A stretch of 64,000 bases of DNA. It comes from Oscillospiraceae bacterium (GTDB lineage Bacteria > Bacillota > Clostridia > Oscillospirales > Oscillospiraceae). The number at the start of each line of letters is the position of its first letter. Position 1 is the stretch's first letter. The stretch covers positions 1 to 64,000 of the forward strand of contig SVLD01000004.1 in the NCBI GenBank assembly GCA_015068125.1, in the 5' to 3' direction. Position numbers and translations under genes: made by a program. The notes beneath the pieces were generated by a model. It did not search any database, was not told the DNA's origin, and saw nothing but the letters and a program-made list of their open reading frames with translations. Positions 3,111-39,507 of this stretch are shown here, piece after piece.

Positions 3111-3977
3111 TCACCTTTGTATCATTATATTGGCTGCCAGAAGCAGCCCCAGAAGCATTTCCGAACCGGAGGTGCTTCCAATTTTCATCAATTGTGTGAT
3201 GTCCACAGGGGCCTCGCCGCCCAATGCCCGGAGAATATCGTCCAGCCTGGAAAAAGCAGCGCCATCTGCTACGGCAGAAAGATAAGCGGCGCTGATAGCA
3301 TGGGTTTGCTCCGGGGCAAAACCCCGGATGGCGGTTTGCAAATGACGGGTATTGTTCTGCTCAGGTGCAAGACGCAGCAGTCCGTAGAGTATGCCCAGCA
3401 AAACATCGTCCAGGGAGGGTGTAAGGCCTGCTCCCAGCCCCAGCAGAGCGGCAACGCATTTGGATATGGAGGAAAAATCGCTCTCTTGTAGCGCCGCCAG
3501 GAGCCTCACAAGATGGGGCCGCGCTTTCTGGCACCAAGGGGAGATTTCGGTGGTCAATGCCGTATCCAACAGCAGGGGAGCGGACAGAACAGCGACGCTC
3601 TGGGGCTTGCAGGCTGCAGCGAGCTGCGCGGCGCAGTGGCGGATTGCCTGGGGGTGGGGTGCTTTTGGAGATGGAAAATCCTCAGAAACGGTATATTTCG
3701 GGATCAAATCGCCTTTCGGAAAGCGGATCTTACCGGAGATAATGCTGACAGTATCTCCTGGCTGGGGAGATAACACTGTCAAAAAATCTTCATACCGCCC
3801 CAGTCCTAAACCGATGGGGGTAACACCAAAACTGTCCGATGTGATTTGTAAAATTTTGGTTGGAAATTGCAAATATATACCCTTTGATGTGGATAGAAGC
3901 ACTTCTCCGCATTGGTTGTTTTGCAAAAACATGAAAATGTCCAGATTAACACAAATATTGTCCTGGAATACTGTCAT
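3111..3977 (-). CDS. DUF2877 / AllH-like protein
   Basis: This 288-residue protein carries the DUF2877 hallmark GLGAGLTPSLDDVLLG at about residues 190-205 and the late SGSEMLLGLLLA segment. In E. coli the family member AllH (YlbF) is one of three subunits of oxamate carbamoyltransferase, together with AllF (FdrA) and AllG (YlbE). Homologues of AllF and AllG lie 3-5 kb away at 6118-9059, so this is probably the third subunit of the same complex. The start at 3977 is chosen over an in-frame ATG at 4001 because GGGAGGTGGG lies just before it. It is transcribed divergently from the AraC gene at 4058 and is separated from its presumed partners, which is unusual. Confidence 0.8.
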   Translation of the reverse strand: MTVFQDNICVNLDIFMFLQNNQCGEVLLSTSKGIYLQFPTKILQITSDSFGVTPIGLGLGRYEDFLTVLSPQPGDTVSIISGKIRFPKGDLIPKYTVSEDFPSPKAPHPQAIRHCAAQLAAACKPQSVAVLSAPLLLDTALTTEISPWCQKARPHLVRLLAALQESDFSSISKCVAALLGLGAGLTPSLDDVLLGILYGLLRLAPEQNNTRHLQTAIRGFAPEQTHAISAAYLSAVADGAAFSRLDDILRALGGEAPVDITQLMKIGSTSGSEMLLGLLLAANIMIQR

Positions 3978-3995
3978 AAAACCCACCTCCCAGCC

Positions 3996-4024
3996 TTGCA
4001 AATATGGGCTATTTTTGCTACAAT
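3996..4024 (+). promoter_or_regulatory. sigma-70-type promoter of the AraC gene
   Basis: TTGCAA (3996-4001), a 17-base spacer and TACAAT (4019-4024) lie 34 bases upstream of the ATG at 4058, in the gap shared with the divergent DUF2877 gene. Confidence 0.65.
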
Positions 4025-4057
4025 AATGTCAGAAACTGCCGAAAGGAGATGCGCAGC

Positions 4058-4888
4058 ATGGAGCTGATCCACGCCAATCCCTTTGTTCGTTTTGCAGATA
4101 AGCTGCATTTTTCTTTCCAGCGAGGACCGTCAAAAACCTACGATTGCCGGCTGATTTACGGTCTGGAAGGCCGTGCCACCGTCTTTGTAGAGGATGTTTC
4201 CTATACCATGCGCCATGGCGGCCTGATCATTTTCCAGCCGGACACCCAGTATACCATTTATCCGGACGCATCTGTAGAGCTCATTGTGCTGGATTTCGAT
4301 TTTACCCAGGATTTCAGCCATGTGGCCACCAGTATGATTCCTTGTCCCACCAATGCCTTCATTTCGGGGGATGCCCATCCGAAGGTATCGTTTTCCGATG
4401 CGCCCTTGTTTGACGAACCGGTCTATTTTGAAAATGTGACCTTTCTCGAGCCGGTACTCCGGGAGATTGTGTCGGAATTTCAGGAAAAGCGGCTGTTTTA
4501 CAGCGGCAAGATTTCCACGCTGCTGAAGTCGGCGCTTTTTGAAGTGGCGCGGTACAGCCAGCTGGACAGCAAGAGCAATACCCTGGTGACCCAAATCATG
4601 CAGTACATCGATGCCAATATTTCCGGTCAGATCACCAACGGCGCTTTGGGCGAGTATTTCAATTACAATCCCAATTACTTAAACCGGCTGATGCTCCGGC
4701 ATACCGGAAAGACCCTGCACAAATATGTGATGCAGCAGCGGATCTCCCTGTCACTGAAGCTGATCCAAACCACCAACATGACCATCGCGGAAATTGCCAT
4801 GCACTTGGGCTTCAACAGCCCCTCTCATTTTTCCTATTGCTTCAAAAAGGAAATGGGCTTTTCTCCCATGCAGTTCCGCAACGAATAA
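4058..4888 (+). CDS. AraC family transcriptional regulator
   Basis: This 276-residue protein has an N-terminal cupin-like effector domain (about 1-150; RATVFVEDVSYTMRHGG and the turn IIFQPDTQYTIYP) and a C-terminal double helix-turn-helix (about 180-276; YFNYNPNYLNRLMLRHTG, then the family signature MTIAEIAMHLGFNSPSHFSY and FKKEMGFSPMQFR). Such proteins usually activate sugar-utilisation operons in response to a sugar or sugar acid. The ATG at 4058 has AAGGAG at 4043-4048. It lies between the AllH-like gene (divergent) and the AllF/AllG operon (convergent), so it is the likely controller of this catabolic island. Confidence 0.88.
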   Translation: MELIHANPFVRFADKLHFSFQRGPSKTYDCRLIYGLEGRATVFVEDVSYTMRHGGLIIFQPDTQYTIYPDASVELIVLDFDFTQDFSHVATSMIPCPTNAFISGDAHPKVSFSDAPLFDEPVYFENVTFLEPVLREIVSEFQEKRLFYSGKISTLLKSALFEVARYSQLDSKSNTLVTQIMQYIDANISGQITNGALGEYFNYNPNYLNRLMLRHTGKTLHKYVMQQRISLSLKLIQTTNMTIAEIAMHLGFNSPSHFSYCFKKEMGFSPMQFRNE

Positions 4889-4939: not shown

Positions 4940-6121
4940 TTATTGCAGCATACTGCAGACGTTCTGCGCGACGATGCTTTCTTCGTCGGTTTTCAGCCGC
5001 CAGACGGATACCTTGCTGTCAGCGGTGCTGATGCAGCCGTCGGTTCTGCCGTTGTTGGCATCGGAATCCAAAGCAAGACCGAGGTAGGCCAGCTTTTCGC
5101 AGACGCGGCTGCGGACAACGTCGCTGTTCAGGCCGATGCCGCCGGTGAACACCAGAGCGTCCAGACCACCCAGGTAGGCGATGTACATGCCGATGTAGCC
5201 CAGAATGTTGTCAATCAGGGTATCTACGGCCAGCTGAGCCTGGGCGTTGCCGCCCTCGGCAGCTTCCAGCACCAGCCGCAGGTCGTTGCTGACGCCGCTA
5301 AGGCCCAGCAGACCGCTCTGCTTGGACAGAATGGCCAGAACATCTTCCATAGAGCAGTTCAGCTTTTCCATCAGCATAGGCAGGCAGAAGGGCTCAAAAT
5401 CACCTACCCGGTTGTTGTTGAACAGACCGGACTGCAATGTGGCGCCCATGGTGGTAGCGATGCTCTTACCGTCCAAAATGGCGCAGATGGAGGAAGAACC
5501 GCCCAGATGGCAGGTGATAACCCGCCGAGCATCGGGCTGAAGCTTCTTCATAGTGCGAGCGATGTACTCATGGCTGGAGCCATGGAAGCCGTACTTGCGG
5601 ATGCCGAATTCCTCCCGCCAGGCGTAGGGGACGCCGTAGGTGGTGCGGCAGTCGGGGATGGTGGCGTGGAAGCTGGTTTCAAACCGGGCAACCTGAGTCA
5701 GCTCCGGGTAATCCCGGCGGATACTCTTCATGGCGGACAGATAGATGGGATTGTGGGCCGGTGCCAGGGGTGTCACACGCTCCATTTCTGCGATCAGCTC
5801 GTCGTCCACAAGGCGAGTACCGGACAGGCTGCCGCCGTGGACGGCCTTGTAACCCACTGCGTTCAGATCCTGAAGGCCGGTCAGCAGACCGTCACGCTGC
5901 AGAATGTCCAAAAACAGGGTAAAGCCTGCGCCGTGGTCGGGGATGGGGCAAGCGCCGGACTGGCTGTGGCCGTCAGCGCTGGCGTACTGCCAGCGGCTCA
6001 TCTCGGCGCCAACGGATTCAATCTCACCGCTGGCCCGGACATCCATATTCTCGCCATCCACATGATAGAGCTTGAATTTGAAGCTGGTAGTACCCAGATT
6101 CATGATAAAAATCTTTTTCAT
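4940..6121 (-). CDS. acetate-kinase-family acyl kinase (divergent)
   Basis: This 393-residue ASKHA-fold protein is homologous to acetate/propionate kinase along its length: NLGTTSFKFKLY near residue 8, LAPAHNP near 119, KYGFHGSSH at 177-184 (catalytic His180 kept), CHLGGSSS near 204 and FTGGIGLNS near 322. Family members move phosphate between acyl phosphates and ADP. Compared with Methanosarcina acetate kinase several catalytic positions are changed: the HRVVHGG motif reads YKAVHGG (Arg91 to Lys), the FDTAFH motif reads FETSFH (Asp148 to Glu), and Asn211 is lost. This points to an acyl phosphate other than acetyl phosphate. Its ATG overlaps the AllG-like stop by 4 bases, so translation is coupled. 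In E. coli the equivalent place is filled by carbamate kinase. Confidence 0.85.
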   Translation of the reverse strand: MKKIFIMNLGTTSFKFKLYHVDGENMDVRASGEIESVGAEMSRWQYASADGHSQSGACPIPDHGAGFTLFLDILQRDGLLTGLQDLNAVGYKAVHGGSLSGTRLVDDELIAEMERVTPLAPAHNPIYLSAMKSIRRDYPELTQVARFETSFHATIPDCRTTYGVPYAWREEFGIRKYGFHGSSHEYIARTMKKLQPDARRVITCHLGGSSSICAILDGKSIATTMGATLQSGLFNNNRVGDFEPFCLPMLMEKLNCSMEDVLAILSKQSGLLGLSGVSNDLRLVLEAAEGGNAQAQLAVDTLIDNILGYIGMYIAYLGGLDALVFTGGIGLNSDVVRSRVCEKLAYLGLALDSDANNGRTDGCISTADSKVSVWRLKTDEESIVAQNVCSMLQ

Positions 6122-7536
6122 ACAGTTTCCTTTTCGTACTTGGCGACGAAGGCTGCCATGGCCTTTTCAAAGCACTCCATGGGAATCCGGGCCATACCGG
6201 CACCAATGAGGCCGCCTTCCTTGTTGAACATACCGCCGTGGATCACGGGGCTGATGCCGGTTTCCAGGACCTTGCGGATGTCGATGCCCACCGGCAGGAA
6301 ATCGAAGTCCATGTTGGGGATGGGGTAGTTATAGTTCTTCTTGACGCAGATCTTTTCCATCTCCCGGGTCTGGGCGATGGCATCCTTCAGCTTCATGCCC
6401 CGGAGGTTGCAGACGATGGGAGACGCGGCAGCGGCCAGGCCGCCCAGGCCGGCGCATTCTACTACGCAGCTGTCGCCGCACCAGGGGATCTGGTCGTCGA
6501 TGGTATACTTGCTGGAGGTGTAGCGGCCTTCCATCATGGGCGCGGGAGCGGTGAACCACTCATCACCCATAGCGGCGATCTTGATACCGAATTCCACGCC
6601 GTTGCCGCAGACTGCGGTGACCACGGTGGAGTATTCTCTGCCCACGTTGCCCAGCATAGCGGCGCGGCTTGCGCCCTGTCCGAAGCAGTGGAAGAAACGG
6701 GGAGTTTCGATGATGTACTGCATGGAAGCCATGACCTGATCCCTGGGCATATCCAGCTTCATCATGTCCATGGTGATCTGATGCTCAAACAGCAGGTCGG
6801 CAGCGGACTGACGGGTGTGGTTCTCGTCGCCCATGACCATGCTTTCTGCCAGAATGGGCTTGATGGGCAGACCACCCTTGGCCTTGGCAACCTCAGCCAT
6901 GGGGGGCAGCAGGTATTCCTTCATGTGACGCAGATTTTCTGCGATACCCTCGGAGTACAGACCCCAGCCGCAGAAGCCGCCCTGATAGACGATACCCTCA
7001 GCAGGGAAGGTGGCGGCGACACGGCCATTGTTGCGATCCTTAATGATGATCATGGCAACGCTCTTGGTGATAATACCGGTGCCGGCGCCAACGGTGTTGG
7101 TGTCCAGAGCGGAGATCATCTTGATCTTGCCGCTGTGGATCAGCTCCAGCGCTTCCTCCTCAGTCTTTGCCCAGCCTTCGAACAGGCAGGCGGAGACCAT
7201 GCCCCGCTGATGGAGCATGACCATATCCTCAAAGGAAATGGGAGGGCCGGAGTGGGTGACGGTGTAGTCGTCCAGACCTTCGATGACCTCGCCGGCGGGC
7301 TTGACATCGATCCACACGGGGTCAGCCTGAATGACCATATCGGCGGCGGCTTCGTTGGCCTCGTCGATCTTGGCGCCCAGAGCGCCGGTGGTGACTTTCA
7401 GCAGCTGCTCCTGGAGCTCCTGACTGAGCTTCACAGGGGGATGCCAGTCGATCTGGGCAACCTTGCAGTCCTGATTGACCAGGGCATCATAGAAAGAGGA
7501 GATGCCCAAATTTACGATTCTCAGTTTTTCAGCCAT
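6118..7536 (-). CDS. DUF1116 / AllG-like (YlbE) protein
   Basis: This 472-residue protein has the DUF1116 pattern: SGPPISFEDMVMLHQRGM near residue 95, ESMVMGDENHTRQSAADLL near 231 (the MGDE.H.R core), and VCGNGVEFGIKIAAMGDEWF near 304. In E. coli AllG is a subunit of oxamate carbamoyltransferase with AllF and AllH. It starts 5 bases after the AllF-like stop with a GGAGGTAAG ribosome binding site and overlaps the kinase gene by 4 bases. The coupling of AllF, AllG and an acyl kinase suggests that the complex produces an acyl phosphate which the kinase consumes. The real substrate is unknown. Confidence 0.85.
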   Translation of the reverse strand: MAEKLRIVNLGISSFYDALVNQDCKVAQIDWHPPVKLSQELQEQLLKVTTGALGAKIDEANEAAADMVIQADPVWIDVKPAGEVIEGLDDYTVTHSGPPISFEDMVMLHQRGMVSACLFEGWAKTEEEALELIHSGKIKMISALDTNTVGAGTGIITKSVAMIIIKDRNNGRVAATFPAEGIVYQGGFCGWGLYSEGIAENLRHMKEYLLPPMAEVAKAKGGLPIKPILAESMVMGDENHTRQSAADLLFEHQITMDMMKLDMPRDQVMASMQYIIETPRFFHCFGQGASRAAMLGNVGREYSTVVTAVCGNGVEFGIKIAAMGDEWFTAPAPMMEGRYTSSKYTIDDQIPWCGDSCVVECAGLGGLAAAASPIVCNLRGMKLKDAIAQTREMEKICVKKNYNYPIPNMDFDFLPVGIDIRKVLETGISPVIHGGMFNKEGGLIGAGMARIPMECFEKAMAAFVAKYEKETV

Positions 7537-7541
7537 TTTTC

Positions 7542-9059
7542 TTACCTCCGATCCAGCTCGTTCATCATGGCGCTGGCCAGCTTGGCGCTCTGATAGTTGC
7601 TCTTGACAACGATCACGCCGGAGTCAACCAGCAGCTTTTCCTTCTCCGCAACATTCTGGGGATCTTCCTGAGAGCCGCAGATGCTGGAGATAAACACGAT
7701 TTCAGGATGCTTGGCGCATTCCTTGGCGAAAGCGGTAATGGGGTCGGCGGCAACGCCGGGGCCGGTGATGAAGTCCACCAGCACAACGCCTACTTCCTCG
7801 TCGTTAAGTTCCTGACGCAGACGGGCAAGCCGGAGGCTGGGGTCGAACACCGGGTGGGGAGCCTTGGCAGTAAAGTCCTCGGCACCCAGATCCAAAATAG
7901 CGTGGCCTTCGCTCTTTTCAGAATCAGCCAGCTTGGTGCAGAAGCGGTTAGAAAGGTTGGAGTTCAGCTGAACGCCCTGGTTGTGGGCGCTGAAATACTG
8001 CAGAGCTTCTTCGGTGAAGGTGCCGCCGCAGTATAGACCACGGAAATACTTCCGCTTGCTGTCCAGTTTGGCAACGGATTCCTTTGCCAGCTTGGCGATT
8101 TGTTCGTCATTCATACCGAAGTCACTGACATTTCCGCCGGCCAGCTCCACAGCCTTCAGGGCGCATGCCTCCAGGCTGAAGGTGGCGTGAACCTTGTGAC
8201 CCTCAAACAGCTTTTCGTTGCTGCCCAGGAACACAACCACAACAGGCTTGGTGCAGTTGTCGGCAACATCCAGAACTTTGGCCATAACGCCCAGGTCAGC
8301 CAGCTTGGAAACCAGCACGATGACCTTGGTGTTGGGGTCGTTTTCCATGCGATGGATACCCTCAATCATGGTAATGCCGCCGATCTGGGGGTACAGGTCC
8401 CGGCCACCGGTGCCGATGAGGTTGCTGACGCCGAAGCCGCACTTTTCGATGATGCAGCCCACTTCCTGAGCGCCGCTGCCGGAGGCGGCAACGATGCCGA
8501 TGGGGCCATCCTTAATGATGGAGCCTGCGGCCAGAGCTACACCGTTCAGCAGGGCAACGCCTGCATCGGGGCCCATGACCAGCTTGCCCAGCTTTTTGCC
8601 CAGCTGCTTCAGCTCCAGCTCTTCTTCAATGGTCACATTGTCACTGAAGATAAACAGATCCATGCCCATGTACAGCGCCTTTTTGGCCTCTGCGGCGGCG
8701 TATTCGCCGGGCAGGGAGATCTGACACAGATCGTAGGGATCTTCCTGGAGGTTGATCTCGGACAGGCTGTTGTAACTAGTATAATCGTCCACATCCTTGC
8801 GGTCAATGATGTTCTTGACCATTTCGATGGCTGCGCCGCAAATTTCCTCGGTTTCCGCGGTGACGGCGATGACCAGATCATTGCTGGTCACATCCTCGGG
8901 CAGGGTATAGCTCAGTTCCTTCAGCAATGCCTGGTTGGCGGCGGTGGCCATCATGGCTTCCACATTGCTGACGCCCTCCAGGGTCAGAACTCTGTCGGAA
9001 ATGCCCATCAGGCTGACGGAGTCCACATAGCGTTTCTTTTCAACAATTACTTTTTGCAT
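7542..9059 (-). CDS. FdrA / AllF-like acyl-CoA-synthetase-fold protein
   Basis: This 505-residue protein is of the FdrA (AllF) family, related in fold to the alpha subunit of succinyl-CoA synthetase. Visible marks are GPIGIVAASGSGAQEVG near residue 185 (nucleotide/phosphate-binding Rossmann region), IGTGGRDLYPQIGGIT near 214 and the second-domain segment VGVVLVDFITGPGVAADP near 424. In the E. coli complex this subunit, with AllG and AllH, interconverts oxalurate plus phosphate and oxamate plus carbamoyl phosphate. GAGGTG precedes the ATG. It follows the FAD protein by 11 bases. No carbamate kinase, ureidoglycolate dehydrogenase or allantoinase is nearby, so a role in allantoin use is unlikely here. 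Confidence 0.85.
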   Translation of the reverse strand: MQKVIVEKKRYVDSVSLMGISDRVLTLEGVSNVEAMMATAANQALLKELSYTLPEDVTSNDLVIAVTAETEEICGAAIEMVKNIIDRKDVDDYTSYNSLSEINLQEDPYDLCQISLPGEYAAAEAKKALYMGMDLFIFSDNVTIEEELELKQLGKKLGKLVMGPDAGVALLNGVALAAGSIIKDGPIGIVAASGSGAQEVGCIIEKCGFGVSNLIGTGGRDLYPQIGGITMIEGIHRMENDPNTKVIVLVSKLADLGVMAKVLDVADNCTKPVVVVFLGSNEKLFEGHKVHATFSLEACALKAVELAGGNVSDFGMNDEQIAKLAKESVAKLDSKRKYFRGLYCGGTFTEEALQYFSAHNQGVQLNSNLSNRFCTKLADSEKSEGHAILDLGAEDFTAKAPHPVFDPSLRLARLRQELNDEEVGVVLVDFITGPGVAADPITAFAKECAKHPEIVFISSICGSQEDPQNVAEKEKLLVDSGVIVVKSNYQSAKLASAMMNELDRR

Positions 9060-9070
9060 ATAATTTCACC

Positions 9071-10627
9071 TCAAACTGACTCTTTGGACAGGGCAAAACC
9101 GCCGTCCTTATTTTGAATGATGATGCGATAGACTTCGGTTTCTTGGATAGAATCTTCCCGGCAGTGACAGCCGATGCTTTCTTTGCGCGCCAGTGCGCTG
9201 ACAAAGGCGATCCGTGCGGTGAGAAGATCGTTGTACAGCCGGTGCTTTTCGTAGCAACCCCGGTGATCGCCCAACTGCTCCAGAAGCTTGTCGATTTCAG
9301 CGATGCCCCGGGAAAGCTCCGCTTCCGTACGGATCACGCCCAGGTGATTTCGAAGGAGCGTTTGCAGGCTTTGCGCCAGGTTGGAAATATCCACATCTGA
9401 CGCCCGGTTCTGGGTTTCTTCAGCCCGACAGGGCAGGGCAGAGGGATCAAAATTCCGGAGGGCGGTCTGACCGGCGATACGGCCAAAGACCATGGTTTCC
9501 AAACCGGCGTTGCCGCCTAAGCGGTTGGCGCCGTGCAAGCCGCCGGTGACTTCACCGCAGGCAAGCAGTCCGGGAATGCCAGTGCGGCAGTTTTCGTCGA
9601 TGAGGGCGCCACCGCAGGTGGTGTGGGCTGCCGGGGCAATCTCCACCGGTTCTTTGGTCATGTCGATGCCGTGATTTAAGTACCGGCTGCGATAGGGCTT
9701 GTAGACTCCCTCCCACAATGCCTGGGGTACGGCAGTGGCATCGAACCAGACACCACCGTGAGGCGTAGCGCCGTTGCGTCGAATTTCGTCGCAGATGCCC
9801 TTGGCCAGAAGATCCTTGGAAACGCACTCGCCGTCAGGGCTGTAACGGTCCATGAACCGCTGACCGCTGCTGCCCCGGAGGACTGCGCCCTCATAGAACA
9901 TGGTGGTGATAATGCTCTTACCCACCAGTTCCGGCGGCCATACTGCGGCACTGGGCTCGAACTGGATAAATTCCATGTCCGTCATCTTCGCCCCGGCTAA
10001 GTATGCCATGGCGCAGCCGTCACCGCCGATATCCGGGGAGTTGGTGGACTCCGGGAAGAGCTTGCCGAAGCCGCCGGTGGCCAGGATTGTAAGCTTTGCG
10101 CCGATGGCGCAGAAGCTGTCGGCGTCCTTGTCGTAGCAGTAAGCGCCGGTTACACGGTCGTCGGTCTTGATAAGCTCCAGTGCCCGGAAATTTCGGTATT
10201 CCCGGTAATTGGGGGAGGCGTTCAGTTTCTTTCGCAGGGTGCTGAGCATAGCCGGGCCGGTATTATTGTGAATGCCGGCGATCCGGGCTACGGAAGAACC
10301 CAGGGACTTGATCAGCTGATAGCCGTTTTCGTTACGGTCAATCTCCAGACCCAGCTCCCGGAAGTATTCCGGCAGCTCCAGGCTATCATGGCACAGCCGT
10401 TTTACCAGTGCCGGGCGGCTTTGCTGATAGCCGGAGGCCATGGAATCGTTATAGAACAGTTCCTCGCTGTCGTCTTCGCCCACCGGCAGGCAGAAGCCGT
10501 GGATGTATGGGGAAGCGCCGCCGCCGCACTGCAGCAGGGTCACTTCCAGATCGCTGTTTTTGATAATCTCATAGGCGGCAGCAATACCGGTGAGACCGCC
10601 GCCGATGATCAAAATATCGGTCTGCAT
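9071..10627 (-). CDS. FAD-dependent oxidoreductase (fumarate reductase / L-aspartate oxidase family)
   Basis: This 518-residue flavoprotein begins with an FAD-binding Rossmann motif (DILIIGGGLTGIAAAYE), has the capping-domain region FIQFEPSAAVWPPE near residue 218, the active-site signature HTTCGGALID near 334 and the second FAD motif GANRLGGNAGLETMVFGR near 364. Family members oxidise succinate or aspartate or reduce fumarate and similar enoates. There is no signal peptide, so it is cytoplasmic. It starts only 3 bases after the dehydratase stop. In this operon it could oxidise the hydroxyl at C4 of a 2-keto-3-deoxy acid or reduce an enoate intermediate; this is inference. NadB itself is less likely because nadA and nadC are absent. 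Confidence 0.82.
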   Translation of the reverse strand: MQTDILIIGGGLTGIAAAYEIIKNSDLEVTLLQCGGGASPYIHGFCLPVGEDDSEELFYNDSMASGYQQSRPALVKRLCHDSLELPEYFRELGLEIDRNENGYQLIKSLGSSVARIAGIHNNTGPAMLSTLRKKLNASPNYREYRNFRALELIKTDDRVTGAYCYDKDADSFCAIGAKLTILATGGFGKLFPESTNSPDIGGDGCAMAYLAGAKMTDMEFIQFEPSAAVWPPELVGKSIITTMFYEGAVLRGSSGQRFMDRYSPDGECVSKDLLAKGICDEIRRNGATPHGGVWFDATAVPQALWEGVYKPYRSRYLNHGIDMTKEPVEIAPAAHTTCGGALIDENCRTGIPGLLACGEVTGGLHGANRLGGNAGLETMVFGRIAGQTALRNFDPSALPCRAEETQNRASDVDISNLAQSLQTLLRNHLGVIRTEAELSRGIAEIDKLLEQLGDHRGCYEKHRLYNDLLTARIAFVSALARKESIGCHCREDSIQETEVYRIIIQNKDGGFALSKESV

Positions 10628-10630
10628 GGT

Positions 10631-12301
10631 TTATTCCCAAATGCCGCCCTTGGCCATAGAACCTACATTCTTAACAAACAGCCGCAGGAAGCGGGGATAT
10701 TTTTCCGCAGGGAACTCCCAGTGGAAGGCGGCTTTGCGTTTGGCCAGCTCTTCATCGGACAGCTCCACGTTCATGGTGCGGTTCTTTACATCAATCTCGA
10801 TGATGTCGCCCTCTTCAATCAGCCCCAGGGGGCCGCCCAGGGCAGCTTCCGGGGAAACATAGCCTACACTGAGGCCGGAAGTGCCGCCGGAGAACCGACC
10901 GTCGGTGATGACGGCGCAGGATTTATACAGGGCAGGATCGCCCTTCAGCTCCTCCTGGAAGGTAAAGGCGGTGGTGCCGAAGCGCGCCTTCAGACCCAGA
11001 AAACGCAGCACGCAGGCATCGCCGGGCTTCACTTCGCCGTTACGCAGAGCGGTCAGACCCTCTTCCAGAGAGTTGAAGATCCGAGCTTTGCCACGGAAAT
11101 AAGTCAGTTCCTCAGGCACAGCGGCGATCTTTAGGATCGAGCCCTCGGGAGCCAGATTGCCGTAAAGCACGCCCAGACCGGGCTCCTGGGAAACAGGATT
11201 TTCCAGGGTGCGGATCACGTCGCTGTGATAGATCTTTGCGTTCTTGCAGTTTTCTGCCAGAGTGTTGCCGGTAACGGTGATGCAGGAGCCGTCCAGCTTG
11301 GGCATCAGCTCTTTCAGCAGAGCGGGCAGACCGCCGGCCAGATCCAGATCCTTGACGGAGTAGGGGCCGCCGGGAGCCAGGTGGCTCATGAGAGGAATCT
11401 CGTTGGAGGCCTCATCGAAATACTGCCACCAGGGCAGATCGTAACCGGCCTCGTTGGCGATAGCGGGGATGTGCAGGATCAGATTGGAAGAACCGGCGAT
11501 GGCCATGTCCGTCTTAATGGCGTTCTTGATGGCGCTGACGGTCATCACATCCCGGGCCTTGATGTCGTTGCGAACCAGTTCCATGATCTGCAGACCTGCC
11601 ATGTAAGCCAGCTTGTAGATGGCAGAGCCGGTGGCGTCCATGGTGGAGTTGCCGGGCAGGGTCATGCCCATAGCCTCGGCGATCATGCACATGGAGTTGG
11701 CAGTGGTCATGGAGGTGCAGGCACCGCAGGTGCCCCAGGAATTTTCAATGAGATCGTTATAAAGATCCATGTCCATAGCGCCTTTGTGGGCGGTGCCCAC
11801 CTTGTCCTGGGCGTGGATATGCAGGACTTCCTTGCCACGGCAGTGACCCAGGGGCATATAGCCGCCGGTGACCAGAATGGTGGGGATATTGACACGGGCG
11901 GCGCCCATCAGGTGACCGGGGACGATGGAGTCGCAGGTGGACAGCATAACCATGCCGTCGAACATATTGCTTTCGCTGGTCAGTTCCACCTGGTCAGCGA
12001 TGCAGTTGCGGCTGGGAACTTCGATATACCGGGGGTCTTTCATAACCATGCCGTCGCAGACAGCGGTGGTCATGACCTCAACAGGCAGGCCGCCGGCTTC
12101 CCGGATACCCTGCTTGACACGCTCGGCCAGCTTGTCCAGATGGACATGGCCGGGGTTGTACTCGTTCCAGGAATTGACAACGCCAATGAGGGGACGCTTC
12201 TGCTCCTCGGGGGTGTAGCCCATGCCGCACATCAGACCCTTGCGGCACTCGGAGGCTTCGCCGAATTCCCAACAGCTTCGCATATCTTTGTATTCTTTCA
12301 T
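10631..12301 (-). CDS. IlvD/Edd family sugar-acid dehydratase
   Basis: This 556-residue protein has the full IlvD/Edd architecture. Likely iron-sulfur ligands are Cys in STCDSIVPGHLMG near residue 123 and in GTCGACTSMTTANSM near 190; the C-terminal domain shows TDGRFSGGTSG near 463 and VGYVSPEAALGGPLG. Members dehydrate dihydroxy acids (branched-chain synthesis), 6-phosphogluconate, or free aldonic acids such as arabonate, xylonate and gluconate. The neighbours (SDR, MBL hydrolase, KDPG aldolase, KDG kinase) favour an aldonate dehydratase making a 2-keto-3-deoxy acid. No other ilv genes are nearby. AAGGAGGT precedes the ATG. Confidence 0.87.
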   Translation of the reverse strand: MKEYKDMRSCWEFGEASECRKGLMCGMGYTPEEQKRPLIGVVNSWNEYNPGHVHLDKLAERVKQGIREAGGLPVEVMTTAVCDGMVMKDPRYIEVPSRNCIADQVELTSESNMFDGMVMLSTCDSIVPGHLMGAARVNIPTILVTGGYMPLGHCRGKEVLHIHAQDKVGTAHKGAMDMDLYNDLIENSWGTCGACTSMTTANSMCMIAEAMGMTLPGNSTMDATGSAIYKLAYMAGLQIMELVRNDIKARDVMTVSAIKNAIKTDMAIAGSSNLILHIPAIANEAGYDLPWWQYFDEASNEIPLMSHLAPGGPYSVKDLDLAGGLPALLKELMPKLDGSCITVTGNTLAENCKNAKIYHSDVIRTLENPVSQEPGLGVLYGNLAPEGSILKIAAVPEELTYFRGKARIFNSLEEGLTALRNGEVKPGDACVLRFLGLKARFGTTAFTFQEELKGDPALYKSCAVITDGRFSGGTSGLSVGYVSPEAALGGPLGLIEEGDIIEIDVKNRTMNVELSDEELAKRKAAFHWEFPAEKYPRFLRLFVKNVGSMAKGGIWE

Positions 12302-12313
12302 GATGATACCTCC

Positions 12314-13102
12314 TTAGAAGTCCTCTTTCATGCTTTCGATATTGCCGGTAACGGTCTGACCGCCGTCAACACGGAGGATCTGACCGGTGATGTAACGGGT
12401 GTTTACTTCGTCGGACATAAACAAAATGGCAGGCACGATGTGCTCGGTCTGACCCAGGAAGCCCACGGGAATGCGGTTCTCAAAAGCCTCCAGGTCGCTG
12501 GGCTTATAGCGGTCGCTGAGCTTGGTCATGATGAAGCCGGGAGCGATGCAGTTGACCCGGATGCCGTACTTGGCAACTTCCACAGCCAGAGCCTTGGTCA
12601 TCATTTCCATACCGCCCTTTGCAGCGCAGTAGGGCAGGAACTTCCGCTTAACCCAGGAGATGGAGCCGTGGACGGAGCTGATGTTTACGATCCGGCCGGG
12701 GATATTGTGCTCCTTCATATTGCGGATGGCGGCCTGAGCGCAGTATGCGGCGCTGCTCAGGTTCAGGGTGATCTGGCGATCCCAGTAGTCCAGCGGCAGG
12801 TCTTCAAACTCACCGGCGGGAATCTGCAGAGCGCCGCCGGCGTTGTTGATCAGCACATCGATGGTGCCAAAGTCAGCCAGGAAAGCCTGCATCAGCTCCT
12901 CGCAGTCCTGGCGGTACTGGAAGTCTGCCTTGTAGATCTTGGCGTCGATGCCATACTGCAGGCACTCTGATTGAATCTTCTGGGCACCCTCGGGGTTCTT
13001 GCAGTAGGTGATGCCCACATTGTAGCCCATTTTGGCAAAGGCGATGGCGGTGGCGGCGCCGATGCCGTTGGAGGAACCGGTGACAAGTACATTTTTGCTC
13101 AT
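12314..13102 (-). CDS. SDR family NAD(P)-dependent oxidoreductase
   Basis: This 262-residue classical short-chain dehydrogenase has TGSSNGIGAATA (cofactor site, residues 8-19), NNAGG near 90, the catalytic Ser region NISSVHGS near 145 and the catalytic YCAAK near 160. Length and motifs fit the classical family. Its place between a sugar-acid dehydratase and a lactonase-like MBL enzyme fits either a sugar 1-dehydrogenase or a 2-keto-3-deoxy-sugar-acid 4-dehydrogenase of the kind used in non-phosphorylative fucose and rhamnose routes. The choice cannot be made from the sequence. Confidence 0.88.
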   Translation of the reverse strand: MSKNVLVTGSSNGIGAATAIAFAKMGYNVGITYCKNPEGAQKIQSECLQYGIDAKIYKADFQYRQDCEELMQAFLADFGTIDVLINNAGGALQIPAGEFEDLPLDYWDRQITLNLSSAAYCAQAAIRNMKEHNIPGRIVNISSVHGSISWVKRKFLPYCAAKGGMEMMTKALAVEVAKYGIRVNCIAPGFIMTKLSDRYKPSDLEAFENRIPVGFLGQTEHIVPAILFMSDEVNTRYITGQILRVDGGQTVTGNIESMKEDF

Positions 13103-13122
13103 AAATCATTACCTCTTTTGCA

Positions 13123-13989
13123 TTAGAATTGGTTTAGATGTTCGGTTACGGTATACAGAGCCATGAACAGCCGCTCGGGCATGCCACAGCCTTTTTCCTG
13201 AATCAGGCGCAGAGCGATTTCTGCGGGATCGGTGCAGCCGCTATCCCGGCAGCTGCGGATGAAGCAGTCGTAATGGGATACATAGTCCTTGCAGATGCCA
13301 AGGGTGTTCTTCACCGCTGCTTTGCCGGTGATGAGATAGCCGATGCCCTCGTAATCGTGGCCGCAGAGGATGTTTTCGATGTCCATGTCCCACAGCTTGC
13401 TCAGGGTGCAGCGATAGTCCGTCAGGCTCTTGTAGAAGCCAACGCCCTGGCAGATGGTGCCGTTGGCCTGGAGGCTGTCGCCGGTGATGATGGTCTTGGT
13501 GGGAATGTCGTACCAGCAGACGCAATCATTGTCGTGACCGGGGGTGTGGATTACCTGGAGCCGTCCGGCAAGGATATCTCCATCCTGCAAAATTTCATCC
13601 ACGCCGATGCCCTTCAGGAAACTCTGGGGGGCAGGGGAGTGCGCCGGAAATTTGGTGCGGGTCTGGATGGCATAGGGAACGGGATCTGCGATCTTTGGGG
13701 CGGCAAGGGAAAAAGCGGCCACCTTGAAATCACCAAGCTGGCGCAGACGGTAGTTGCCGCCGATGTGATCGCCGTGGCAGTGGGTGTTGACCAGATAATC
13801 GATATCGCCCACGGTCATGCCCAGCTCCGCCAGGGCAGGGACGATGCAGCTGTCCACATCATTATCCGTTGCGGCGGTGTCGATGAGGATGTTCGTTTCG
13901 CCCCGGAGGAGGATAACACCTGTCCAGACAGGGCCGAAGGGAACCTTCAGCAGGAAAATGCCGGGGATGATTTCTTGAAATCTCTCCAT
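13123..13989 (-). CDS. metallo-beta-lactamase fold hydrolase
   Basis: This 288-residue MBL protein has the complete zinc motif NTHCHGDHIGG near residue 68 and the later ligand HTPGHDND near 155, with C-terminal CGHDYEG near 218. It is cytoplasmic. First gene of the seven-gene minus-strand operon; its promoter is at 14028-14056. The start at ATG 13989 is preferred over an in-frame GTG at 13995 because AAAGGA is 9 rather than 3 bases away. In this setting a lactone or thioester hydrolase is plausible; many MBL proteins cannot be assigned a substrate from sequence. Confidence 0.8.
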   Translation of the reverse strand: MERFQEIIPGIFLLKVPFGPVWTGVILLRGETNILIDTAATDNDVDSCIVPALAELGMTVGDIDYLVNTHCHGDHIGGNYRLRQLGDFKVAAFSLAAPKIADPVPYAIQTRTKFPAHSPAPQSFLKGIGVDEILQDGDILAGRLQVIHTPGHDNDCVCWYDIPTKTIITGDSLQANGTICQGVGFYKSLTDYRCTLSKLWDMDIENILCGHDYEGIGYLITGKAAVKNTLGICKDYVSHYDCFIRSCRDSGCTDPAEIALRLIQEKGCGMPERLFMALYTVTEHLNQF

Positions 13990-14010
13990 AAACACAGATC
14001 CTTTCTGTAC

Positions 14011-14025
14011 TTTTGTGATACAAAA
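14011..14025. promoter_or_regulatory. candidate operator TTTTGT-N3-ACAAAA
   Basis: A perfect 6-3-6 inverted repeat lies just downstream of the -10 box of the minus-strand promoter at 14028-14056, a typical repressor position. The binding protein is unknown. Confidence 0.45.
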
Positions 14026-14027
14026 TC

Positions 14028-14056
14028 AGTATAAAATAGTTTTCAGCCTGCTTCAA
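14028..14056 (-). promoter_or_regulatory. promoter of the dehydratase/AllFG operon
   Basis: Read on the minus strand, TTGAAG (14056-14051), 17 bases and TATACT (14033-14028) lie about 40 bases before the ATG at 13989. Confidence 0.7.
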
Positions 14057-14180
14057 GCTAGGAAAAATCCAACTACTTACAAAAAATACACTATTCTGGA
14101 CAGAAAAAACCGATCTGCCGCTTTCAATATAAAAAAACATCTGCAAGGTTTCATAAAATCTGTATTTTTACGTTTATGCG

Positions 14181-14209
14181 TTGACACGAAAATAGAAAAC
14201 ATCTATAAT
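14181..14209 (+). promoter_or_regulatory. consensus sigma-70 promoter of the KDPG aldolase gene
   Basis: TTGACA (14181-14186), a 17-base spacer and TATAAT (14204-14209) form a perfect consensus promoter 43 bases upstream of the ATG at 14252. A promoter this strong is normally held down by a repressor. Confidence 0.88.
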
Positions 14210-14251
14210 CAAATGAGAATCAAAAATATGGATCCCAACAGGAGGCGTAAT

Positions 14252-14902
14252 ATGAGAGATATCATTATCCAGAAAGTTTTGGACAAGAAAATTGTGGCAA
14301 TTGTCCGAGGTGTATATGGGCAGGACTGCGTGAATTTGGCAAAAGCACTATATGCCGGCGGCGTAGAGCTGATGGAAGTTACCTTCGATCAGAGCAAGCC
14401 CGAGGCTTTTGACCGCACCTCGGATACCATCCGGTTGCTGGTGGAAACCATGGGGGACAAGATGATCTTCGGCGCAGGCACCGTCACCTCTTTGGAGACG
14501 CTGGAGCTGGCCAGACGGGCCGGAGCCAAGTTTGTGGTATCTCCCGATACCAATGCCGCTGTCATAAAAGCGACTATTGAAGCCGGTATGGTGTCCATGC
14601 CCGGCGCACTGACTCCCACCGAGATCGTTACTGCCTATTCCTGCGGCGCAGACTTTGTTAAGGTGTTCCCCACTTCCGGCTTGGGCGCGGGATATATCAA
14701 AGCGGTTTGTGCGCCCCTCAATCATATCCGGATGCTGGCCGTGGGCGGCGTCAGTGAAAAGAATGTGGGTGAATTCCTGAAGGCTGGTTGTGTCGGCGCA
14801 GGAGTCGGCGGCAATCTGGTGAACAAGGAATGGATCAAAAACGGCGAATTCGACAAAATTACGGCACTGGCCCAGGAGCTGATGGCCAACGCCGCAGTGT
14901 AA
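14252..14902 (+). CDS. eda: 2-keto-3-deoxy-6-phosphogluconate aldolase
   Basis: This 216-residue class I aldolase cleaves KDPG (or the galactonate analogue) to pyruvate and glyceraldehyde 3-phosphate. Family motifs are GGVELMEVTFD near residue 37, IFGAGTV near 72, FVVSPDTN near 92, MPGALTPTEI near 114, the Schiff-base lysine segment DFVKVFPTSGLG near 133 and LAVGGVSEKN near 158. The ATG at 14252 has AGGAGG 6 bases upstream; the frame is open further upstream but without a matching family N-terminus. It forms an operon with the KDG kinase 16 bases downstream. Some relatives act on other 2-keto-3-deoxy acids. Confidence 0.93.
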   Translation: MRDIIIQKVLDKKIVAIVRGVYGQDCVNLAKALYAGGVELMEVTFDQSKPEAFDRTSDTIRLLVETMGDKMIFGAGTVTSLETLELARRAGAKFVVSPDTNAAVIKATIEAGMVSMPGALTPTEIVTAYSCGADFVKVFPTSGLGAGYIKAVCAPLNHIRMLAVGGVSEKNVGEFLKAGCVGAGVGGNLVNKEWIKNGEFDKITALAQELMANAAV

Positions 14903-14918: not shown

Positions 14919-15941
14919 ATGAAAAGAGTTATTACATTTGGTGAGATCATGCTTCGTCTGAACCCGGAGGGTGCTCTGCGGTTTGTCCAGGCGGAGAAGT
15001 TTGAAGCAAGCTATGCCGGCGGCGAGGCCAATGTGGCCGTTTCCCTGGCAAACTACGGCATGGATGCCGCCTTTGTTTCCAAGGTTCCTGCCCATGCCAT
15101 CGGCCAGTGCGCCGTCAACGCCTTGCGGCACTTCGGCGTAGACACAAAGGGTATGGTTCGCGGCGGCGACCGCCTGGGCACTTACTATGTGGAAAAGGGT
15201 GCTTCCCAGCGGCCCTCCAAGGTCATTTATGACCGGGCTTATTCCGCGATTGCCCTGGCAGAGCCCAGCGATTTCGACTGGGATGCCATTTTTAACGGCG
15301 CGGACTGGTTCCACTGGACCGGTATCACTCCCGCTCTGGGCGGCAATCTGCCCCAGATCTGCCTGGAGGCCTGTAAGGCTGCCAAGGCTCGCGGTGTGAC
15401 CATCTCCTGCGACCTGAACTACCGCAACAAGCTGTGGAGCCGGGAGAAGGCCTGCGAGGTTATGAGCCAGCTGATGCCCTATGTGGATGTTTGCATCGCC
15501 AATGAGGAGGATGCCAAGGATGTCTTCGGCATTGAGGCCGCTAACACTGACATCAACTCCGGCAAACTGGATCACAAGGGATATATTTCCGTTGCCCAGC
15601 AGATCCATGACCGCTTCGGCTGCAGCAGCGTGGCCATCACCCTCCGGGGCAGCATCTCCGCTGACGATAACGATTGGGCTGCCATGCTCTATCAGAACGG
15701 CCAGGCTTACTTCTCTCCCACCTACCGCATCCACATCGTCGACCGCGTTGGCGGCGGCGACAGCTTCGGCGGCGGCCTGATTTACAGCCAGCTGGTTGGC
15801 AAGGATCCTCAGAGCTCCATCAACTTCGCTGTTGCTGCGTCCTGCCTGAAGCACACCATTTCTCACGATTTCAATCTGGTAACCGTAGAGGAAGTGGAGT
15901 CCCTGGCAAAGGGCAACGCTTCCGGCCGGGTGCAGAGATAA
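14919..15941 (+). CDS. kdgK: 2-keto-3-deoxygluconate kinase (PfkB family)
   Basis: This 340-residue PfkB-family sugar kinase phosphorylates KDG at O6, feeding the preceding aldolase. It begins RVITFGEIMLRLNP, has the substrate-binding YAGGEANVAVSLANYG near residue 32 and the C-terminal ATP/catalytic motif VGGGDSFGGGL near 287, where the usual AAGDAF reads GGGDSF, a common variant in KdgK. AGGAGG precedes the ATG. It is the last gene of a two-gene operon closed by a terminator at 15955. Relation to uronate or aldonate breakdown follows from the pair. Confidence 0.92.
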   Translation: MKRVITFGEIMLRLNPEGALRFVQAEKFEASYAGGEANVAVSLANYGMDAAFVSKVPAHAIGQCAVNALRHFGVDTKGMVRGGDRLGTYYVEKGASQRPSKVIYDRAYSAIALAEPSDFDWDAIFNGADWFHWTGITPALGGNLPQICLEACKAAKARGVTISCDLNYRNKLWSREKACEVMSQLMPYVDVCIANEEDAKDVFGIEAANTDINSGKLDHKGYISVAQQIHDRFGCSSVAITLRGSISADDNDWAAMLYQNGQAYFSPTYRIHIVDRVGGGDSFGGGLIYSQLVGKDPQSSINFAVAASCLKHTISHDFNLVTVEEVESLAKGNASGRVQR

Positions 15942-20705: not shown

Positions 20706-20736
20706 TATGTATTCCTCCTAAGAGTTTTATATGATA

Positions 20737-35881: not shown

Positions 35882-36718
35882 ATGGCAAGTATATTTATGC
35901 GCTTTCCCGGCGGCAGGGTCAAGACTGTGACCTTGAGCTATGATGACAATGTGGAAGCGGATGTGCGCCTGGTGTCCATCATGAAAAAGCACGGTTTAAA
36001 GGGCACCTTTAATATCAACAGCGGTCAGTATCCTCCGGAGGATTCTGTGGGCAGTATGGGCTGCGGCCATCGCCGGCTGACGCTGAAGCAGTCTACGGAA
36101 TTACATAAGGACAGCGGCATGGAGATCGCCTGCCACGGCGTGACCCATCCTTTCCTGGATCATCTTCCGCCCAGCGTTTGTGTGCAGGAAGTACTGCAGG
36201 ACAGACTGAATCTGGAAAAAATCTACGGAACCTTTGTCCGTGGCCTTGCCTATCCCTTTGGCACCACCAACGATGATGTGGTGGCGGCTCTGAAGGCCTG
36301 CGGCATCGTCTATGCCAGAACCGTCGTGTCTACGGAAAAATTCGATATGCCTTCGGATTGGCTCCGGCTGCCCGGCACCTGCCACCATGCAAACCCCAAG
36401 CTCATGAAGCTGGCTCAGCGTTTTGTGGAGGACAAGCGGAACTGGACACCCATGATGTTCTATCTCTGGGGACACAGCTACGAATTTGACGACAACGACA
36501 ACTGGCATATCATCGAGGAATTTGCTGAATACATCGGCGGCCGGGAGGATATCTGGTACGCTACCAATATCGAGATTTACGACTATGTTGCTGCCTGGAA
36601 GCAGCTGGTATTCAGCGCCGACGGCACCAAAGCATACAACCCCACCAATACGGAACTGTTTGTTAAAACGGGTAACGGTCTATTTAGCATCCAACCCGGT
36701 GAAACCAAAAATATTTAA
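35882..36718 (+). CDS. polysaccharide deacetylase family protein
   Basis: This 278-residue protein belongs to the NodB-homology (carbohydrate esterase 4) family, which removes acetyl groups from glycans with a bound metal. Visible: metal/catalytic SYDDN at residues 19-23 (Asp-Asp), HGLKGTFNINSG near 37, the His pair CHGVTHPFLD near 82 and a later LWGHSYEFDDND. There is no signal peptide, so it acts in the cytoplasm, unlike peptidoglycan deacetylases. That fits removal of acetyl groups from imported oligosaccharides before hydrolysis. It opens a long plus-strand operon. Confidence 0.85.
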   Translation: MASIFMRFPGGRVKTVTLSYDDNVEADVRLVSIMKKHGLKGTFNINSGQYPPEDSVGSMGCGHRRLTLKQSTELHKDSGMEIACHGVTHPFLDHLPPSVCVQEVLQDRLNLEKIYGTFVRGLAYPFGTTNDDVVAALKACGIVYARTVVSTEKFDMPSDWLRLPGTCHHANPKLMKLAQRFVEDKRNWTPMMFYLWGHSYEFDDNDNWHIIEEFAEYIGGREDIWYATNIEIYDYVAAWKQLVFSADGTKAYNPTNTELFVKTGNGLFSIQPGETKNI

Positions 36719-36738
36719 GCAGAATGGAGAATATTATC

Positions 36739-37503: not shown

Positions 37504-37527
37504 TCATCAGGAAGAGAGGAATGTACT

Positions 37528-38487: not shown

Positions 38488-38499
38488 GGAGAAAAGACT

Positions 38500-39495: not shown

Positions 39496-39507
39496 GGAGA
39501 ATTACTT

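What the first reader, a model, noticed from the sequence alone, without database searches (positions are those of the whole stretch)
4940..13989. Possible phosphorolytic, ATP-yielding cleavage of 2,4-diketo sugar acids by an AllF/AllG/AllH-type complex
One operon encodes an MBL hydrolase, SDR, IlvD-type dehydratase, FAD oxidoreductase, FdrA/AllF-like, DUF1116/AllG-like and an acetate-kinase homologue, with the AllH-like DUF2877 gene nearby. Known: AllFGH in E. coli interconverts oxalurate plus phosphate with oxamate plus carbamoyl phosphate, with a carbamate kinase recovering ATP. Inference: oxalurate (carbamoyl-NH-CO-COO) is an isostere of a 2,4-dioxo acid (acyl-CH2-CO-COO). Dehydratase plus dehydrogenase would make a 2,4-diketo-3-deoxy acid; phosphorolysis would give pyruvate plus an acyl phosphate; the acyl kinase would make ATP. 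This would be an energy-saving version of the hydrolytic branch in non-phosphorylative fucose and rhamnose pathways.
Basis: partly seen in the sequence, partly recalled or inferred. Interest (0 to 1): 0.88.

Follow-up and report, generated by a model that had tools for sequence, protein, structure and literature searches.

The report
Sugar-acid cleavage operon with acyl kinase
A conserved bacterial gene set appears to break down sugar acids by a phosphate-driven carbon-carbon cut that would save energy as ATP; this reaction is predicted from sequence and has not been shown in the laboratory.

Summary
The operon is real: on the minus strand from 13995 to 4940, MBL hydrolase, SDR, IlvD-type dehydratase, NadB/SdhA-like flavoprotein, AllF-like, AllG-like and an acetate-kinase homologue, gaps -4 to 20 bases. 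AllH (3111-4001) lies past an AraC gene.

An AllG scan gave 60 loci in four phyla. Of 44 with enough flank, 38 carry SDR, MBL, IlvD and FAD genes, 1 IlvD+FAD, 2 FAD only, 3 none: a nested series fitting the order SDR/MBL, IlvD, FAD, AllFGH, kinase. AllG splits into an E. coli-like side with carbamate kinase and two kinase-linked clades. The flavoenzyme keeps one carboxylate site and loses the other (49 of 49); the kinase has an altered acyl pocket (42 of 42). Carbamate kinase is in 0 of 60 loci.

I judge phosphorolysis of a 2,4-diketo-3-deoxy acid the best explanation (0.55). The sugar is unresolved; lactate is suggested in one lineage. The kinase signature is not unique to this module, three loci lack FAD, two lack AllF. 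No activity has been measured.

The parts
13123..13995 (-). MBL-fold hydrolase, probable sugar lactonase (first gene of operon)
   Evidence: Pfam Lactamase_B 4.2e-27; present in 38 of 44 well-flanked loci; lactonase role inferred
12314..13102 (-). SDR dehydrogenase, probable aldose 1-dehydrogenase
   Evidence: adh_short_C2 3.6e-56; solved relatives include glucose 1-dehydrogenases; substrate inferred
10631..12301 (-). IlvD/EDD-family dehydratase, probable aldonate dehydratase
   Evidence: ILVD_EDD_N 5.1e-107; below the ilvD equivalog cut-off (535.1 of 618.15 bits); best solved relative a dihydroxy-acid dehydratase, further ones L-arabinonate and galactonate dehydratases
9071..10627 (-). NadB/SdhA-like flavoprotein, proposed 2-keto-3-deoxyaldonate 4-dehydrogenase (C3-C4)
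   Evidence: FAD_binding_2 1.4e-53; H335 and R369 kept, E224/I240/T241 at the second-carboxylate site, K271 for the proton-shuttle Arg
7542..9059 (-). AllF (FdrA)-like subunit, succinyl-CoA-synthetase-like
   Evidence: Ligase_CoA 6e-32, FdrA model 357.7 bits; solved relative 3dmy FdrA 6e-54; 51 columns shared by clades A, B and C
6118..7536 (-). AllG-like subunit (PF06545), clade B
   Evidence: 1.4e-59; solved relative 3clq 7.1e-64; clade B 100/100; 38 columns shared by clades A, B and C
4940..6121 (-). Acetate-kinase-family acyl kinase with altered acyl pocket
   Evidence: PF00871 1.3e-102; K92, A122, E148, G208, Q230, S231 in place of R, L, D, N, L, E of AckA
4004..4888 (+). AraC-family regulator, opposite strand
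   Evidence: HTH_18 3e-19
3111..4001 (-). AllH-like third subunit (PF11392)
   Evidence: 6.2e-20; only PF11392 match found in the genome
2225..3106 (-). Aldose 1-epimerase family protein
   Evidence: PF01263 1.2e-20; relatives in 14 of 60 loci
14015..14902 (+). KDPG/KHG aldolase (domain from residue 85; true start probably further in)
   Evidence: PF01081 3e-37; eda model 165.3 bits, cut-off 156.05; in 36 of 60 loci
14919..15941 (+). PfkB kinase, probable KDG-type kinase
   Evidence: 69% identical to L017 PfkB, whose best model is the KHG/KDPG aldolase/sugar kinase fusion NF041633 at 566 bits, under its 700-bit cut-off; in 33 of 60 loci

Best explanation
An oxidative, non-phosphorylative sugar pathway ending in a phosphorolytic carbon-carbon cut. 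Inferred order: aldose to lactone (SDR), lactone to aldonate (MBL), aldonate to 2-keto-3-deoxyaldonate (IlvD), oxidation across C3-C4 by the flavoprotein to the (enol of the) 2,4-diketo-3-deoxy acid, AllFGH-like cleavage with phosphate to pyruvate plus a 2-hydroxyacyl phosphate, then the acyl kinase makes ATP and a 2-hydroxy acid (lactate, glycolate or glycerate, by sugar). Shown here: gene content, conserved linkage, clade split, active-site changes, nested gene series. Inferred: every substrate, the direction, phosphate as the attacking group, and the ATP gain. The aldolase and PfkB kinase would handle phosphorylatable 2-keto-3-deoxy acids in parallel.
For: Recurrent gene set in loci of four phyla with shuffled order. 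Nested series in 44 of 60 loci with enough flank: 38 with SDR+MBL+IlvD+FAD, L042 IlvD+FAD, L054 and L061 FAD only with a TRAP transporter and IclR, 3 with none; no locus keeps an upstream gene without the later ones. AllG clades B and C (kinase-linked) join at 100/99 apart from clade A, of which 20 chosen loci have 0 acetate-kinase neighbours and 8 carbamate-kinase neighbours. Five AllG positions (E. coli H93, M101, R258, I304, T381) that are at least 93% one residue in A differ in both B and C. Flavoenzyme: H351 and R386 of NadB kept, H244 to E, E260 to T, R290 to K in 49 of 49: one carboxylate bound, not two (roles recalled). Kinase: R91 to K, D148 to E, L233 to Q in 42 of 42 and L122 changed in 41 of 42, against R, D and L122 in 25 of 25 high-scoring AckA from the same genomes; Leu122 is an acetate-binding determinant (PMC4390882, passage). 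The same signature is in kinases of PVM-type microcompartment loci, for which lactyl phosphate to L-lactate is the published scheme (PMC8857213, figure legend). Of 10 well-flanked loci without a linked kinase, 7 lie in genomes with a signature kinase elsewhere. In L018 a nickel lactate racemase (604.7 bits, cut-off 460), EtfB-EtfA and a GlcD-like oxidase follow AllH directly. In clade C, glycerate kinase or tartronate semialdehyde reductase adjoin. E. coli AllFGH interconverts oxalurate + Pi and carbamoyl phosphate + oxamate (PMC11326118, abstract and Discussion).
Against: No activity data. L020 has AllFGH and kinase, but its genome has no match to the flavoenzyme. L046 and L051 lack AllF and a linked kinase, and no signature kinase was read in their genomes. 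10 of 44 loci have no linked kinase; for five of these the signature kinase is in a microcompartment-type locus, where it has another likely job, and for L031 it is unresolved (a fragment only). The signature also occurs in at least 7 of 397 other genomes of the phylum sample with no AllFG in the stretch fetched; only the 30 best kinase matches were checked. The two clade C kinases L103 and L104 have E, not Q, at L233. AllH was not found in 12 of 44 loci. An aldolase plus kinase branch in many of the same operons makes a second cleavage look redundant. Sugar unresolved: no PF17389 rhamnosidase, PF01120 fucosidase or PF06134 rhamnose isomerase in the window's 87%-complete genome, and rhamnose isomerase in relatives G022, G061 and G063.
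Confidence: 0.55

Rival explanations
1. Same pathway and same 2,4-diketo substrate, but the cut is thiolytic: AllF, a succinyl-CoA-synthetase relative, uses CoA to give an acyl-CoA that is turned to acyl phosphate inside the complex before the kinase acts.
For: AllF matches succinyl-CoA synthetase alpha and Ligase_CoA domains.
Against: The published E. coli reaction is written with carbamoyl phosphate and phosphate only (PMC11326118); none of the ten window proteins is a phosphotransacylase.
Confidence: 0.12
2. SDR, MBL, IlvD, PfkB and KDPG aldolase form an ordinary semi-phosphorylative Entner-Doudoroff pathway; flavoenzyme, AllFGH and kinase are a separate route that makes an acyl phosphate from some other acid of the same plant polymer.
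For: Aldolase in 36 and PfkB in 33 of 60 loci; AllH fused to a KDPG aldolase domain in L034; clade C loci have AllFG and kinase without IlvD, SDR, MBL or FAD nearby.
Against: FAD is beside AllFG in 41 and IlvD in 39 of 44 loci, more often than aldolase (31) or PfkB (29); L029, L036 and L050 have the full upstream set with neither aldolase nor PfkB in the stretch held.
Confidence: 0.2
3. The complex runs the other way: the kinase spends ATP to make an acyl phosphate that AllFGH condenses onto a keto acid.
For: The family's reaction is written as reversible (PMC11326118).
Against: Neighbours are transporters, glycosidases, lactonase, dehydratase and hydroxy-acid oxidation genes, a degradation setting.
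Confidence: 0.05
4. It is an oxalurate (ureide) enzyme as in E. coli, and the sugar genes are chance neighbours.
For: 38 AllG and 51 AllF columns are shared with clade A.
Against: Carbamate kinase in 0 of 60 loci, absent from 25 of 31 genomes; separate clade.
Confidence: 0.03

Closest known systems
E. coli AllFGH oxamate carbamoyltransferase with carbamate kinase AllK (PMC11326118)
   Same: Three homologous subunits, kinase gene in the same operon, keto-acid-like leaving group and phosphate (the last two by homology).
   Different: Separate AllG clade; acetate-kinase-family partner in place of carbamate kinase; sugar-acid genes in place of allantoin genes; five AllG positions of the E. coli clade differ.
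Non-phosphorylative L-rhamnose / L-fucose route with a 2,4-diketo-3-deoxy acid hydrolase (recalled, no call)
   Same: Dehydrogenase, lactonase, dehydratase, C4 oxidation to a 2,4-diketo acid, pyruvate plus hydroxy acid.
   Different: IlvD-type dehydratase; flavoprotein as C4 oxidase; AllFGH plus acyl kinase in place of the hydrolase, so ATP could be kept.
Acyl kinase of Planctomycetes-Verrucomicrobia microcompartments (PMC4207490, PMC8857213; passages seen)
   Same: Same pocket signature; proposed lactyl phosphate substrate.
   Different: Acyl phosphate there is proposed to come from lactaldehyde through lactyl-CoA, not from AllFGH.
L-aspartate oxidase / fumarate reductase flavoproteins
   Same: FAD domain family, one carboxylate-binding His and Arg.
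   Different: Second carboxylate site changed, proton-shuttle Arg is Lys in 49 of 49.

Membership tests
AllFGH oxamate carbamoyltransferase (OXTCase) | AllF, AllG and AllH homologues encoded together | tested here: met
   AllH is on the operon strand but past the oppositely oriented AraC gene
AllFGH oxamate carbamoyltransferase (OXTCase) | Carbamate kinase partner | tested here: not met
   0 of 60 loci, no match in the window's genome at E <= 1e-20
AllFGH oxamate carbamoyltransferase (OXTCase) | AllG groups with E. coli AllG | tested here: not met
   Clade B 61 rows, 100/100, apart from clade A 25 rows
AllFGH oxamate carbamoyltransferase (OXTCase) | Carbamoyl transfer with oxamate | not testable with these tools
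   Needs enzyme assay
Acetate kinase (AckA) | PF00871 over cut-off with catalytic His180, Arg241, Glu384 | tested here: met
   343.8 bits, cut-off 22; residues kept in 42 of 42 (numbering recalled)
Acetate kinase (AckA) | Acetate pocket Val93, Leu122, Pro232, with Arg91 and Asp148 | tested here: not met
   Val93 kept in 41 of 42, Leu122 in 1, Pro232 in 26, Arg91 and Asp148 in 0
Non-phosphorylative 2,4-diketo acid route | Sugar dehydrogenase, lactonase and dehydratase | tested here: inconclusive
   Right families; substrates untested
Non-phosphorylative 2,4-diketo acid route | FAH-family 2,4-diketo-3-deoxy acid hydrolase | tested here: not met
   None among the 40 window ORFs scanned in Pfam; not every ORF of the window was scanned and related loci were not searched for it
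L-aspartate oxidase / SdhA | Residues binding both carboxylates and the proton-shuttle Arg | tested here: not met
   (residue roles recalled, one passage for FrdA R287)

The most novel reading that the evidence does not exclude
A multi-subunit enzyme of the AllFGH family cleaves a carbon-carbon bond of 2,4-diketo-3-deoxy sugar acids with inorganic phosphate (a phosphorolytic retro-Claisen reaction), and a dedicated 2-hydroxyacyl kinase turns the acyl phosphate into ATP, giving an ATP-yielding alternative to the hydrolytic branch.
Probability: 0.5. Interest if true: 0.87.

Novelty: new variant of a known kind. Interest (0 to 1): 0.78.

Why it matters
If true, it adds a reaction type (phosphate-driven C-C cleavage of a beta-diketone to an acyl phosphate), a new function for the FdrA/DUF1116/DUF2877 families, an acyl-kinase group and a flavoprotein specificity that present family models do not separate, and an energy-saving sugar route in bacteria of four phyla, many from animal guts. 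It is directly testable because one carrier, Oligosphaera ethanolica DSM 24202, is a named strain.

Tried and rejected
Ureide/oxalurate role: rejected on partner kinase, clade and carbamate-kinase survey.

Signature kinase as a marker found only with AllFG: rejected; the signature also occurs in microcompartment loci and in at least 7 other genomes of the phylum sample without AllFG in the stretch fetched. My notebook reading, that the kinase follows AllFG even when unlinked, was corrected for the Opitutales and the Planctomycete.

L-fucose or L-rhamnose as the window's sugar: not supported (rhamnosidase family in 15, fucosidase family in 8, rhamnose isomerase in 10 of 21 genomes, none in the window's). 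Other fucosidase families were not searched. Lactate is indicated only for the L016/L018 lineage.

Second AllH-aldolase fusion (L042): rejected on re-check; AllH and aldolase matches lie in different frames. Counts made from my own gene calls missed some genes; the counts given are from tblastn on the DNA, except the epimerase count.

Sulfoquinovose (sulfo-ED) was thought of from memory and not tested.

AllH structure prediction: machine busy; no model was made. No sequence relative of AllH is in the PDB copy at E <= 1.

Glycosidase families near the module or in the window (GH43, GH35, GH2, GH28) do not agree on one sugar.

Literature: no paper describing this module or phosphorolysis of 2,4-diketo acids was seen in the listings; only open-licence full texts are held. 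PMC11219438 uses 'phosphorolytic' for the kinase-aldolase route (passages). Searches looked for microcompartment and active-site papers.
Full report
What is there. The window is bases 1-64000 of contig 4 of a 1.58 Mb genome bin in 40 contigs, 87% complete; its nearest named relatives are Oscillospiraceae bins (L008 from a water deer caecum, L009). A tight minus-strand operon of seven genes runs from 13995 to 4940. Past its end lie an AraC gene on the other strand, then AllH and an aldose-epimerase family gene; in front of it a KDPG aldolase and a PfkB kinase run the other way.

Recurrence. An AllG profile scan of named genomes gave 60 loci (95 stretches matched a pattern): Bacillota, Verrucomicrobiota, Lentisphaerota including the named strain Oligosphaera ethanolica DSM 24202, and one Planctomycetaceae bin. 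By tblastn these 60 loci, truncated ones included, hold MBL 43, SDR 42, IlvD 45, FAD 49, AllF 55, kinase 41, AllH 36, KDPG aldolase 36, PfkB 33, carbamate kinase 0. Gene order differs: FAD before or after IlvD, kinase in front in L043, L052 and L063, the MBL-SDR-IlvD-FAD half on the other strand in Verrucomicrobiota and L062. Linkage kept through rearrangement points to shared function. In the window's own genus the module is patchy: of 36 other same-genus genomes searched, two have a close AllG (98% and 91%) and two a 35% relative.

Order of steps. Of 60 loci, 44 have at least 7 kb before and 2.3 kb after AllG. 38 have SDR, MBL, IlvD and FAD; L042 has IlvD and FAD; L054 and L061 have FAD only, with a TRAP transporter and an IclR regulator; L020, L060 and L067 have none. 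No locus keeps an upstream enzyme without the later ones. A linear pathway fed at different points would give such a series, and it assigns the C4 oxidation to the flavoprotein. L060 is explained in part: about 50 kb away the same chromosome has a second cluster FAD-AllF-AllG-SDR-MBL-DHDPS family-IlvD, and only one AllH was found in the genome. L067 belongs to clade C. L020 is not explained: its genome has no flavoenzyme match.

Two sides of the AllG family. Of 398 genomes of the phylum, 60 have PF06545. I fetched 20 of the listed places, chosen for spread: 0 have an acetate-kinase neighbour, 8 have a carbamate kinase and 4 others AllB- or AllC-like genes. The tree of 89 AllG rows puts E. coli type (A, 25), operon type (B, 61) and a third type (C, 3) each on one side of one branch, B and C together at 100/99 (L132 is a very long branch and its place is unsure). 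Carbamate kinase was found in 5 of 5 type-A genomes tested and in 6 of 31 genomes with type B or C, there on another contig than the module. AllG of E. coli has H93, M101, R258, I304 and T381 where B has L, G, G, V, G and C has Q, A, G, V, G; 38 AllG and 51 AllF columns are shared by all three (at least 93% within each clade, L125 and L132 left out). So the machinery is kept and the specificity may have changed.

The flavoenzyme. Against E. coli NadB, all 49 rows keep His351 and Arg386, replace His244 by Glu and Glu260 by Thr, have Ile (47) or Ser (2) for Thr259, and have Lys for Arg290. From recalled NadB and fumarate reductase structures, the first two hold one carboxylate and the next group the second; Arg287 of FrdA, the counterpart of Arg290 (recalled), is proposed for proton extraction (PMC5773532, one passage). 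The enzyme thus looks built for a mono-acid, as a 2-keto-3-deoxy acid would be. Its electron acceptor is unknown.

The kinase. All 42 module kinases have Lys for Arg91, Glu for Asp148, Gln for Leu233 and Ser/Thr for Glu234, and 41 of 42 another residue for Leu122; 25 of 25 high-scoring AckA from the same genomes have the standard Arg, Leu and Asp. Five further kinases of those genomes carry the module signature: four in Opitutales-type genomes and one in the Planctomycetaceae genome (L095-L098, L101). Their contexts show shell protein, PTAC and aldehyde dehydrogenase genes in four cases (L106, L108, L110, L187) and the same pattern of gene sizes in the fifth (L107). For such loci the published scheme is lactyl-CoA to lactyl phosphate to L-lactate (PMC8857213, legend; PMC4207490, passages). 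Of the 10 well-flanked loci without a linked kinase, these five genomes account for L044, L048, L049, L055 and L056; L024 and L025 have signature kinases on other contigs (in L025's genome next to an AllH); L031 shows only a fragment; L046 and L051, which also lack AllF, show no signature kinase. In the 398-genome sample, 8 of the 30 best kinase matches have the signature, window included; the other 7 have no AllFG in the stretch fetched, one sits by a PTAC-like gene and one by a lactate/malate-racemase-family gene. Clade C kinases L103 and L104 carry K, V, E, G, E, S. The signature therefore marks a wider acyl-kinase group, not AllFG alone.

What acid leaves. In L016 and L018, whose AllG is 78% and 77% identical to the window's, EtfB, EtfA and a GlcD-like oxidase (390.8 bits in L018, under the 567.9-bit cut-off) follow AllH: directly in L016, where AllH and EtfB overlap by 4 bases, and after a nickel lactate racemase in L018 that passes its cut-off (604.7 of 460 bits) and starts 9 bases after AllH. 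That argues for lactate in that lineage. Clade C has glycerate kinase (L067) or tartronate semialdehyde reductase (L103, 430.5 of 397 bits), arguing for another hydroxy acid. For the window the sugar is open: no PF17389, PF01120 or PF06134 in its genome; relatives G022, G061 and G063 have rhamnosidase and rhamnose isomerase elsewhere, and G022, G033 and G061 lack PF01120.

Chemistry. E. coli AllFGH was assayed from carbamoyl phosphate and oxamate and is written as reversible (PMC11326118, abstract and Discussion). A SdhA-type flavoenzyme removing H from C3 and C4 of a 2-keto-3-deoxy acid would give the enol of the diketone (inference).

Verdict.

Noticed in passing
window 35882-40311 (+): A second possible sugar-acid cluster: polysaccharide-deacetylase family, HpcH/HpaI aldolase, 2-hydroxyacid dehydrogenase, aldo/keto reductase and MBL hydrolase.
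   Followed up: no
L034:12582-14024: AllH domain and KDPG aldolase domain in one 480-aa frame.
   Followed up: partly
L067, L103, L104: Clade C AllG-AllF-kinase loci with GHL6 glycosidase-like genes, glycerate kinase or tartronate semialdehyde reductase, without the IlvD/SDR/MBL/FAD set nearby: probably another substrate.
   Followed up: partly
L102: AllG and AllF read as one 999-aa frame beside carbamate kinase and an AllC-like gene.
   Followed up: no
L121, L122, L123: Two tandem AllG copies beside AllF with AllB- or AllC-like genes; in L121 and L122 the two copies fall in separate starred groups of the tree.
   Followed up: no
L046, L051: Related loci with MBL-SDR-FAD-IlvD-AllG but no AllF and no linked kinase; no signature kinase read in their genomes, as if both parts were lost together.
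   Followed up: partly
L136 (Oligosphaera ethanolica): Second, more divergent AllF-AllG pair (37% and 41%) in a cluster with a DHDPS-family gene.
   Followed up: partly
L171:8886-13825: A signature kinase near a lactate/malate-racemase-family gene and a 2-hydroxyacid dehydrogenase-like gene, without AllFG: another hint that this kinase group serves 2-hydroxy acids.
   Followed up: no
window 18852-22590 (-): Two adjacent 617-aa proteins, both with weak D-glucuronyl C5-epimerase C-terminal matches.
   Followed up: no
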